This document shows positions 2,398 to 32,710 of a stretch of 32,710 bases of DNA, piece after piece. The first letter of the stretch is position 1; every line of letters begins with the position of its first letter. A model generated the notes under the pieces. It worked only from the letters and a program-made list of their open reading frames with translations, was not told where the DNA came from and made no database searches. Source of the DNA: Bacteroidales bacterium (GTDB taxonomy: Bacteria; Bacteroidota; Bacteroidia; Bacteroidales; FEN-979); contig PLMO01000171.1 of NCBI GenBank assembly GCA_003142515.1, forward strand, positions 5,956-38,665, in the 5' to 3' direction. The position numbers and the translations under genes were made by a program.

Positions 2398-2419
2398 GGA
2401 ATGATCCGGGGTATAAAAA

Positions 2420-2481
2420 GTTATTGGTAGTTATTTATTTTCTTCAATTAAGATCAAAGAGGATAAATAACTACCAATAAC
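2420..2481. repeat. Perfect 19-bp inverted repeat inside the PUL operon
   Basis: The arms are 2420-2438 and 2463-2481, perfectly complementary and AT-rich (core TTATTGGTAGTTATTTA), separated by a 24-nt loop. The repeat sits in the 125-bp gap after the LamG lipoprotein gene and 23 bp upstream of the GH144 start. In the transcript it would form a long stem. It has no G+C-rich base and no clean U-run, so it is not a classical terminator. It could be a processing or mRNA-stability element, or the remnant of a small mobile repeat. Confidence 0.75.
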
Positions 2482-2522
2482 CGGATTAATAATAACTAAC
2501 AACTACAACCTTCCAAACCGGG

Positions 2523-12853: not shown

Positions 12854-13854
12854 CTTTTTCCGGTTTTAGTAAAACTGATCTTTAATTCATTTTTCACTAA
12901 ATTAATACAAACTTCCCCTTTTTCAAAGAAATCATATCCAAGCATGCCGTCAATCGGGTATCCATAGGATGCCGACAATGCATCGAGACTTGCAATGATC
13001 GTCTGCATATCCCGGATAGGATATTCTCCAAGAACAAAATCATTCAATTTGCCCAGCAAAACTTCTGCTTCGCCGGAACCCACGCCCATCAGATCAGATC
13101 TTCTCAGGATCGTCACGGTACTTAGTACTTTCTTGGAGGCAAAGCTGTTCAGTACATTTGATTCGGCGCCGGTATCTAAGCAAAAATCGAGGAGTTTTCC
13201 TCCGATCCTAACTTTGACAAAAAGGATGTTATGGTATAATTCGATCTTCTCCGTAACGTCGGCCCTGAATTCAGTCTTCTGAACCGACATCCTGTTACCG
13301 GTTTTATCCAGGCGATATAGTCGAAGTTCATTCTGATTGATATCGATCACCATTTCCATGCCTTTTAACATACACACGCCAAAAAGCCCGAGAACCTTGA
13401 CACCCCGGCGGTTTTCGATGTGGCCGAGGTCTGTTACATCTGCCGTCAGATCGTTGTATAACAACCCGGCAATATCAAGTTTTTTGATCTGCACATGCTG
13501 AATTGCACCCGTTGTTCCGGTAATGCCCCCTCCTTCCCCACCATTAGTCGTCATATATTTCCTGAAATAGGTACTGTTCAGCACCAGCTGGGCAGCACCG
13601 GTATCAAAGAGAAAATTGCCTACCGTGTTATCGATCTTCGCTTCAATCAGGAACAGTCTCCCTATGCGCTTAAGAGGGATGACCACTGATTCAAGTTCAC
13701 CCATCGGGTCCGTGTTCCCGGGTTTGATTCCCGTGATTGAGATCGTATGGGTAATCATAAGTCTTGTCCCTTCCGGAATTTTTTCCGCGAACAAACATCC
13801 TGAAGAAAATAAAAAGAAAACTGCAATTGAGATGAACCGGATCGGAAACTGCAT
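12850..13854 (-). CDS. Exported double retropepsin-like aspartic protease
   Basis: A 334-residue protein with an N-terminal signal sequence (hydrophobic stretch 5-18, then SSGC at 17-20 or cleavage near FAEK). It holds two copies of a retropepsin-like fold. The first has FLFDTGAAQLVL (D84) and, at its end, GLFGVCMLKGMEMVID; the second has FCLDTGAESNVL (D227) and GMLGYDFFEKGEVCIN. Each half thus carries a catalytic-type DTG plus the usual G-[LMF]-[LF]-G-x-D-F-like closing strand (Asp_protease_2 family). Retropepsins normally dimerise with one DTG per chain, so two in one chain would allow an intramolecular active site. Function and substrate are unknown; proteolysis in the periplasm or at the outer membrane is inferred. 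The first half lacks a standard D-F after LFG (VCML), which may weaken it. It is the first gene of a two-gene operon with the CBM48 protein. Confidence 0.8.
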   Translation of the reverse strand: MQFPIRFISIAVFFLFSSGCLFAEKIPEGTRLMITHTISITGIKPGNTDPMGELESVVIPLKRIGRLFLIEAKIDNTVGNFLFDTGAAQLVLNSTYFRKYMTTNGGEGGGITGTTGAIQHVQIKKLDIAGLLYNDLTADVTDLGHIENRRGVKVLGLFGVCMLKGMEMVIDINQNELRLYRLDKTGNRMSVQKTEFRADVTEKIELYHNILFVKVRIGGKLLDFCLDTGAESNVLNSFASKKVLSTVTILRRSDLMGVGSGEAEVLLGKLNDFVLGEYPIRDMQTIIASLDALSASYGYPIDGMLGYDFFEKGEVCINLVKNELKISFTKTGKS

Positions 13855-22096: not shown

Positions 22097-22159
22097 GATT
22101 TACGATTGGACGAGTTAGGATTTTCGAATGAATTTTTTGATTTACGATTTACGATTTTT
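22097..22159 (+). repeat. Heptamer direct repeats GATTTAC
   Basis: GATTTAC occurs at 22097-22103 and in two exact tandem copies at 22139-22152, followed by GATTTTT. Between them lies one octamer GACGAGTT (22109-22116) fitting the NRYGARYT family seen at 17499-17522 and 32460-32491. The 185-bp gap holding it has no other feature that I can see. Confidence 0.5.
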
Positions 22160-32245: not shown

Positions 32246-32292
32246 GCCTGGAATGGAATATCGAATTGACGAAAAATGTTTGGAATCCGATG

Positions 32293-32324
32293 TAAAAATA
32301 TCACAGAATCAGGAGAAAAGCAAA
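32293..32324 (-). promoter_or_regulatory. -33/-7 promoter of the giant cargo gene
   Basis: On the minus strand TTTG (32324-32321) is followed after 20 bp by TATTTTTA (32300-32293). This is close to the Bacteroidota pattern TTTG-N19-21-TAnnTTTG, with one mismatch in the last base. Transcription would start about 41 nt before the ATG at 32245. Confidence 0.5.
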
Positions 32325-32392
32325 TAATATCTTCACGGGAAAGAAGGTGGTAAACAAATCTGAAAAGAGATTTACAAAGTCACAAGGAATGA

Positions 32393-32533
32393 ATTGATAA
32401 TTGATAATTTTTTCTCTGCCTTCACGGTTAAATTTTTCAAAAGAATTACACAGAGAAAAAACTCACTAGCTCGCCAACTCATCAGTTCATCAATCCCTAA
32501 TGGCCAATGGCCAATGGCTAATGGCTAATGGCT
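32393..32533 (+). repeat. Composite of short direct repeats (7-mers and 8-mers) between two T9SS genes
   Basis: ATTGATA occurs twice (32393-32406). An 11-bp perfect inverted repeat follows (TTTTTTCTCTG at 32408-32418 with CAGAGAAAAAA at 32451-32461). Four degenerate octamers, read on the minus strand as GATGAACT, GATGAGTT, GGCGAGCT, AGTGAGTT, occupy 32460-32491. AATGGCC/AATGGCT then occurs five times without gap (32499-32533). The rest of the 315-bp gap 32246-32560 is AT-rich; the promoter of the giant gene is at 32293-32324. Confidence 0.7.
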
Positions 32534-32560
32534 AATTCCTGCTTAATTTCCAGATGATGT

Positions 32561-32710
32561 CTATCGTATCATCACCTTGAGATGATATGATCCATGCATG
32601 GTTTGCAGGGAAAGAAGGTAAATTCCGGAATGAAATGACGTCACCGGAATATCAACAGTTTCATTTTCCGGCTGGGAATGGTATACTTCTCTTCCTGAGA
32701 GATCCGTCAG
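32561..32710 (-). CDS. C-terminal end of a T9SS type A cargo protein (runs off the right edge)
   Basis: The last 49 codons and stop of a minus-strand gene are present; the N-terminal part is outside the window. The frame reads LTDLSGREVYHSQ, DIPVTSFHSGIYLLSLQT and ends HLKVMIR before TAG. These are the conserved LxxxSG(K/R)EV, L/FxxGIYLL and K(V/I) features of the type A (Por secretion tail) sorting domain. The cargo function cannot be told from this fragment. It is the second type A cargo gene in a row on this strand. Confidence 0.85.
   Translation of the reverse strand: MTDLSGREVYHSQPENETVDIPVTSFHSGIYLLSLQTMHGSYHLKVMIR

What the first reader, a model, noticed from the sequence alone, without database searches (positions are those of the whole stretch)
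32393..32533. Densest composite repeat: heptamers, inverted repeat, octamers, heptamers
Within 141 bp lie ATTGATA x2, an 11-bp perfect inverted repeat, four NRYGARYT octamers and AATGGCY x5, located between two T9SS cargo genes. Cyanobacteria are known to carry heptanucleotide repeats (STRR); a Bacteroidota counterpart with changing units and a linked octamer family would be new to me. Possible roles: slippage-prone spacer, recombination site, or a mark left by an unknown element.
Basis: partly seen in the sequence, partly recalled or inferred. Interest (0 to 1): 0.6.

Follow-up and report, generated by a model that had tools for sequence, protein, structure and literature searches.

The report
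Leftover ends of tiny gene cassettes
The odd cluster of 7- and 8-letter DNA repeats is built from the same words that, elsewhere in this bacterium and its relatives, stand as mirror-image ends around tiny one-gene cassettes that seem to move about, which ties a puzzling class of bacterial repeats to two poorly understood small gene families.

Summary
The repeats are real and far beyond chance. They are not special to this spot: period-7, -8 and -9 arrays are strongly enriched in this genome's intergenic DNA (36 period-7 runs against 0 in shuffles). Genes for the four-helix-bundle "23S rRNA intervening-sequence protein" (PF05635; 21 matches in this genome) are bracketed by short tandem arrays of the same word in inverted orientation, a different word from copy to copy. 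Inverted flanks: 30 of 37 copies exceed 95% of swapped controls; in an unbiased sample 7 of 9 such genes have them, against 13 of 945 other genes. GxxExxY genes (PF13366) show the same anatomy with CACAGAG/CGCAAAG-type words. Three of the four window modules match cassette arms exactly over 13-23 bases; the octamers match in kind. At one orthologous site (sdhA-sdhB) relatives show nothing, single arrays, gene-less hairpins, or full cassettes with different words. Related cassettes carry the same words at different loci; one locus carries different cassettes in sister species. The window composite is best read as stacked gene-less ends. Transposition itself, and how most solo arrays arise, is not shown.

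The parts
32246..32560 (.). intergenic gap that holds the composite, between two - strand genes
32392..32409 (+). AATTGAT x2.6 heptamer array; IVP-type arm word
   Evidence: 18 exact bases shared with the arm of the IVP cassette L299
32408..32461 (.). gene-less inverted pair TTTTTTCTCTG ... CAGAGAAAAAA with GxxExxY-type words
   Evidence: GAATTACACAGAG and ATTACACAGAGAAA shared with arms of the own GxxExxY cassette L375
32459..32490 (-). four NRYGARYT octamers; same kind of word as arms of IVP cassette L240
32497..32536 (+). AATGGCY x5.7 heptamer array; IVP-type arm word
   Evidence: 23 exact bases shared with the 3' arm of the own sdhA-sdhB IVP cassette L280
24008..32245 (-). flanking gene: 2745-aa protein with 11 PKD-like domains and a type IX sorting tail
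32561..32710 (-). 3' end of the other flanking gene, sorting-tail-like C-terminus, cut by an N gap past the window

Best explanation
The composite is a pile of gene-less ends of very small one-gene cassettes. SHOWN: in this family of bacteria, genes for the four-helix-bundle IVP/S23 protein, and likewise GxxExxY genes, lie between two short-period tandem arrays of the same word in inverted orientation. The word differs from copy to copy. Closely related cassette genes keep their word at unrelated loci, and one locus can hold different cassettes, gene-less hairpins, single arrays or nothing in related species. SHOWN: the window's words are exact or near matches to such arms. INFERRED: arms and gene spread together as a unit and settle mostly just behind stop codons, also inside operons. 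INFERRED: the arms grow and change by slippage in units of 7-9 nt and are kept complementary to each other, either by hairpin-templated copying or by selection for an RNA stem. INFERRED: when the gene is lost, or only an end is captured, arrays remain; several such events at one tolerant spot gave the window composite. INFERRED by analogy with 23S rRNA intervening sequences: the paired arms let the insert fold out of the transcript and be cut by RNase III, making the insertion nearly harmless.
For: Inverted-flank score: 30 of 37 IVP copies above 95% of 1332 swapped pairs; typical own score about 26 against a swapped median of 10. Unbiased 1.13-Mb sample: 7/9 IVP ORFs against 13/945 others, 2/163 of the same size, Fisher p=1.6e-9. 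GxxExxY: 12/17. Other lineages (cyanobacteria, Sphingobacterium, Acidobacteriota, Planctomycetota and others): 15/24. Same words with related genes at different loci: L286/L289/L301, L276/L310, L297/L298, L275/L306. Same locus with different cassettes: L277 vs L295, outer flanks 86-88% identical, proteins 52%. Series of states at sdhA-sdhB in 28 genomes; empty site in G002. Window words in arms: 23 nt of AATGGCY in L280, 18 nt of AATTGAT in L299, 13-14 nt of CACAGAG in L375. 45 of 79 solo arrays share a 13-mer with the arms of only 50 cassettes, against 11.5% of control stretches. Cassette proteins under purifying selection, dN/dS 0.05-0.18 in most pairs. Arms pair as RNA: median -61.7 against -36.7 kcal/mol for swapped arms; the G014 sdh cassette folds end to end. 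Coxiella's 23S IVS has heptamers beside the S23p ORF and is cut by RNase III at the first repeat (PMC4990558).
Against: 79 of 84 arrays in the own sample are not beside a known cassette gene, and most gaps show no inverted partner (10 of 158 above the shuffle maximum). No transposase in the cassettes, and no RVT_1 reverse transcriptase in this 85%-complete genome. No target-site duplication was found. The window locus itself has no gene and no relative with a cassette at that exact spot; the one orthologous gap (G004) carries a different array. About 7 of 37 IVP copies lack inverted arms, and one (L286) has its words in direct orientation. RNase III excision is untested.
Confidence: 0.66

Rival explanations
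1. Plain slippage: the arrays are neutral simple repeats of 7-9 nt that arise by strand slippage in unconstrained intergenic DNA, as proposed for long simple sequence repeats; the resemblance to cassette ends is secondary.
For: Arrays are almost only intergenic, at periods 7-9 and multiples; their number per gap follows gap length; heptamer arrays are common in other bacteria (PMC4679880); 79 of 84 arrays have no cassette gene beside them.
Against: It does not predict same-word inverted arms around two gene families, the same word at unrelated loci with related genes, or words shared between solo arrays and cassette arms.
Confidence: 0.2
2. RNA-level regulatory element: the arrays act as RNA stems or protein-binding sites in 3' untranslated or intercistronic RNA (message stability, RNase III processing), whatever their origin.
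For: Arrays lie near stop codons (median 17 nt); arms pair as RNA; gene-less hairpins sit in the sdh operon of several relatives; the window composite folds slightly better than shuffles, z -2.25.
Against: Words and even presence change between sister species at the same site, so no single site is conserved; most solo arrays have no inverted partner.
Confidence: 0.1
3. Hot spot between arrays: the small genes insert into, or recombine between, pre-existing inverted arrays; the arrays are targets and not parts of the element.
For: Gene-less hairpins exist at the same site in sister species; synteny breaks fall at arrays in one stretch.
Against: The hairpin words in sister species differ from the cassette words at the same site, and related genes carry their own word to new loci; insertion into one array would give direct, not inverted, copies.
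Confidence: 0.08

Closest known systems
23S rRNA intervening sequences (IVS) with S23p/IVP open reading frames, e.g. Coxiella burnetii (PMC4990558)
   Same: Same protein family (PF05635/TIGR02436) inside an insert of about 400-600 bp with mutually complementary ends; Coxiella's IVS also has tandem heptamers (GACAGAT) next to the ORF; patchy distribution; described as selfish.
   Different: Here the inserts lie between protein genes, not in rRNA; up to about 20 per genome; the arms are multi-unit tandem arrays whose word differs from copy to copy; gene-less versions occur; a second gene family (GxxExxY) uses the same design.
Heptanucleotide STRR / TAACTGA heptamer repeats of cyanobacteria, Beggiatoaceae and Bacteroidetes (MacGregor 2015, PMC4679880)
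   Same: Intergenic tandem heptamers with varied words and patchy distribution across phyla; Kamptonema IVP arms use TAACTGT, one base from TAACTGA.
   Different: That report proposes translational control or horizontal transfer with no mechanism evident; no link to IVP or GxxExxY cassettes was found in the papers searched.
REPINs / RAYT-associated palindromes (PMC3116915)
   Same: Short dispersed intergenic inverted DNA with gene-less copies outnumbering gene-bearing ones.
   Different: REPINs keep one conserved sequence per family and depend on a Y1 transposase (general knowledge); here the word varies between copies and no transposase is in the cassette.
Avd, accessory protein of diversity-generating retroelements
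   Same: PF05635 resembles Avd (PMC10053308).
   Different: No RVT_1 reverse transcriptase was found in the own genome.
P6b heptamer stem of the Nostoc tRNA-Leu intron (PMC4476775)
   Same: A stem made of complementary arrays of 7-nt repeats, with repeated independent replacement of one word class by another.
   Different: Lies inside a group I intron; no gene in the loop.

Membership tests
IVP/S23 cassette (four-helix-bundle gene between inverted tandem arrays) | gene of PF05635/TIGR02436 in the unit | tested here: not met
   No such ORF in the gap 32246-32560; the window composite is not itself a cassette, only array ends with the same words
IVP/S23 cassette (four-helix-bundle gene between inverted tandem arrays) | array words shared with cassette arms | tested here: met
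   AATGGCCAATGGCTAATGGCTAA in L280, AATTGATAATTGATAATT in L299; octamers in L240 arms
GxxExxY-type gene-less hairpin | inverted pair with CACAGAG-type words and the GAATTACACAGAG end | tested here: met
   window 32408-32461 against L375 arms; the inverted pair is only 11 bp
23S rRNA intervening sequence | location in 23S rRNA | tested here: not met
   gap lies between two protein genes
23S rRNA intervening sequence | excision from RNA by RNase III | not testable with these tools
   needs RNA from an organism that carries the element
STRR / long simple sequence repeats | tandem units of 7 nt, intergenic, beyond chance | tested here: met
   36 period-7 runs in noncoding DNA against 0 in shuffles
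REPIN/RAYT | one conserved palindrome with a Y1 transposase | tested here: not met
   words vary between copies; the ORF in the cassettes examined is IVP or GxxExxY
Diversity-generating retroelement | reverse transcriptase | tested here: not met
   no RVT_1 in the own genome, 85% complete

The most novel reading that the evidence does not exclude
IVP/S23 four-helix-bundle genes and GxxExxY genes define a class of minimal mobile cassettes, present in several phyla, whose ends are inverted arrays of 7-9-nt repeats with a freely changing word. The long-puzzling heptamer and octamer arrays of cyanobacteria, Beggiatoaceae and Bacteroidota are the ends and leftovers of these cassettes, and the 23S rRNA IVS is one special case of them.
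Probability: 0.45. Interest if true: 0.88.

Novelty: new variant of a known kind. Interest (0 to 1): 0.74.

Why it matters
Intergenic heptamer arrays have been reported without a known origin, and IVP/S23 and GxxExxY proteins are widespread without a known role. The data tie the two together: arrays are arms of tiny cassettes built around these genes. That turns two open questions into one testable one (do arms and gene move together, and does RNase III cut the insert out of mRNA), and suggests that rRNA intervening sequences are one case of a wider intergenic family.

Tried and rejected
Reverse-transcriptase (telomerase-like or DGR) templating of the arrays: no RVT_1 hit in the own genome. 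Stop-codon traps in all frames: looked at by eye, many units carry no stop on one or either strand, so rejected. Extra clustering of arrays into composites: not significant beyond gap length (51 gaps occupied against 54 expected; 17 gaps with two or more against 13). Head-to-head TAATTC..TTAACC junction as a circular-intermediate scar: 4 against 2 control hits in the own genome, not enriched. AATGGCY triplets as a clade marker: only 3 of 296 phylum genomes have them, yet they recur in cyanobacteria and other phyla. Known RNA families: none in the window. Papers on IVP or GxxExxY with repeats or mobility: only IVS in rRNA, Avd-like context and single mentions.

Full report
OBSERVATION. The window is G000:C148:5956-38665 of a 2.86-Mb, 190-contig, 85%-complete genome. 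AATGGCYAATGGCY has 4 matches and none in 100 shuffles. The gap 32246-32560 lies between two - strand genes. One has 11 PKD-like domains and a type IX secretion sorting tail; the other ends in a sorting-tail-like sequence and runs into an N gap just past the window.

IT IS ONE OF HUNDREDS. A 221-bp query finds about 60 short matches in its own genome, and their flanks are full of similar composites with other words. In 417 kb of the genome, runs of 11 or more matches at lag 7, 8 and 9 number 36, 6 and 7 in noncoding DNA against about 0 in dinucleotide shuffles, with nothing at lags 3-5 or 10. Eighty-four arrays were listed, which scales to several hundred per genome. Differences between units are mostly transitions (period 8: 74 of 87; expected fraction 0.32) and arrays lie near stop codons (median 17 nt). 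The octamer family is found in all five genus members (43-211 hits each), patchily in the family and almost nowhere else in the order; the reversed pattern is near zero in most genomes. AATGGCY triplets recur in cyanobacteria, Rikenellaceae, Planctomycetota, Acidobacteriota and others.

THE KEY. At L037:10006-10520 the arrays turned out to be the two inverted ends of a ~500-bp insert that holds one gene. Its protein belongs to TIGR02436, the four-helix-bundle family, with solved relative 2rld. PF05635 has 21 matches in this genome, 6-14 in genus mates, and none in 14 well-known control genomes. In the flanks of 38 copies the same word mostly stands on both sides in inverted orientation, and the word changes from copy to copy: CACTTAA, GGACAAGC, GGCCATTA, GCTGGAT, GGGACAT, GATTAGG, GTCGGCA, CACAGAGT and others.

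TESTS. (1) Local inverted alignment of each copy's 5' flank with its own 3' flank exceeds 95% of 1332 swapped pairs in 30 of 37 copies; the same flanks compared in direct orientation mostly score at background. (2) In an unbiased 1.13-Mb sample, 7 of 9 four-helix-bundle ORFs have inverted flanks against 13 of 945 other ORFs and 2 of 163 of similar size, p=1.6e-9. (3) GxxExxY genes (PF13366, 13 matches in this genome) show the same anatomy in 12 of 17 cases across the genus and one family member, with words CACAGAG, CGCAAAG, CACGAAG, CGCTAAG, CACAATAGG. (4) All ten genomes chosen from the (AATGGCY)3 hits also carry PF05635, and 15 of 24 of their copies have same-word inverted flanks. (5) Cassette proteins evolve under constraint, dN/dS 0.05-0.18 in most pairs. 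(6) The arms pair as RNA: median -61.7 against -36.7 kcal/mol when swapped, and the G014 sdh cassette folds end to end.

COMPARATIVE STATES. The sdhA-sdhB junction in 28 genomes shows, at one orthologous point: nothing (16-38 bp); single-orientation arrays; gene-less hairpins (G002, G003, G004, G018, G021); or full cassettes with different words (own GGCCATTA; G010, G014, G016, G017 GATTAGG-like; G011 GAGCCAT). At the L289 site, own has a cassette with AATTATG arms, G002 nothing, G003 an AATTATG array at a synteny break, and G004 a long CATCCAG array. Related cassette genes keep their word at unrelated loci (L286/L289/L301; L276/L310; L297/L298; L275/L306), and L277 and L295 are the same locus with different cassettes in sister species. 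At the window's own locus, of the relatives examined only G004 keeps both neighbouring genes, and its gap holds a different array at the same place.

READING OF THE WINDOW. The AATGGCY module shares 23 exact bases with the 3' arm of the own sdh cassette, the AATTGAT module 18 with the arm of a G003 cassette, and the inverted-repeat module 13-14 with the arms of an own GxxExxY cassette. The octamers match in kind the arms of the L240 cassette. There is no gene in the gap. The composite is therefore best read as a stack of gene-less ends of at least three cassettes. Its RNA on the - strand folds into nested stems, z -2.25, only modestly better than shuffles.

HOW IT PROBABLY WORKS. Shown: arms and gene belong together, are found together at different loci, and different inserts occupy the same tolerant site in different species. 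Inferred: slippage in 7-9-nt steps lengthens arms, hairpin-templated copying or selection for an RNA stem keeps both arms complementary, and loss of the gene leaves arrays. By analogy with 23S rRNA intervening sequences, where RNase III cuts at the first heptamer (PMC4990558), the paired arms may let the insert be cut out of mRNA. What moves the cassette is unknown: no transposase in it, and no RVT_1 reverse transcriptase in this genome.

LIMITS. 79 of 84 arrays in the sample are not next to a known cassette gene, although 45 of them share a 13-mer with the arms of only 50 cassettes (11.5% for control stretches). Gene-less inverted pairs exceed shuffles in only 10 of 158 gaps. About 7 of 37 IVP copies lack inverted arms. 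No target-site duplication was identified. The genomes are mostly fragmented assemblies. The literature search covers only open-licence papers.

PRIOR WORK. Heptamer arrays in Bacteroidetes, cyanobacteria and Beggiatoaceae are known (PMC4679880), as are IVS with S23p in rRNA (PMC4990558) and the resemblance of PF05635 to Avd (PMC10053308). In the papers found, no link between heptamer arrays and intergenic IVP or GxxExxY genes was described.

Noticed in passing
L037:10015-10528 and 13210-13294 (own C156) against G003 C56/C25/C77/C35: Synteny with the closest relative breaks at array positions; arrays may act as rearrangement points. One 17-kb stretch only, and one break lies near a contig end.
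   Followed up: partly
upstream of IVP genes, e.g. L277, L283, L285, L288, L297: 13 of 38 IVP copies share a promoter-like block TATTACYTTTT, about 13 nt, GATTAA before the start codon, between the 5' arm and the gene.
   Followed up: partly
window 2398-2522: Another gene-less inverted pair, GTTATTGGTAGTTATTTA, in a gap between two genes (score 21 against a shuffle maximum of 16.5).
   Followed up: no
window 22139-22157: A GATTTAC x2.7 array in another gap.
   Followed up: no
L031 463-505 (just past the window end): The window ends at a short N gap that cuts the upstream sorting-tail gene.
   Followed up: no
L040:2543-2956: A gene that reads like a Y1 transposase, flanked by GCGGCATTTGTAATGCCGCT in inverted orientation: possibly a separate REP-like system in the same genome.
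   Followed up: no
G000:C133:1577-10750: Five PF05635 matches (some partial) on one 14-kb contig; two of them (L279, L281) are 95% identical in protein and share the word AGGTTCA.
   Followed up: partly
L351 (Kamptonema): An IVP cassette with arms of TAACTGT units, one base from MacGregor's unexplained TAACTGA heptamer.
   Followed up: no
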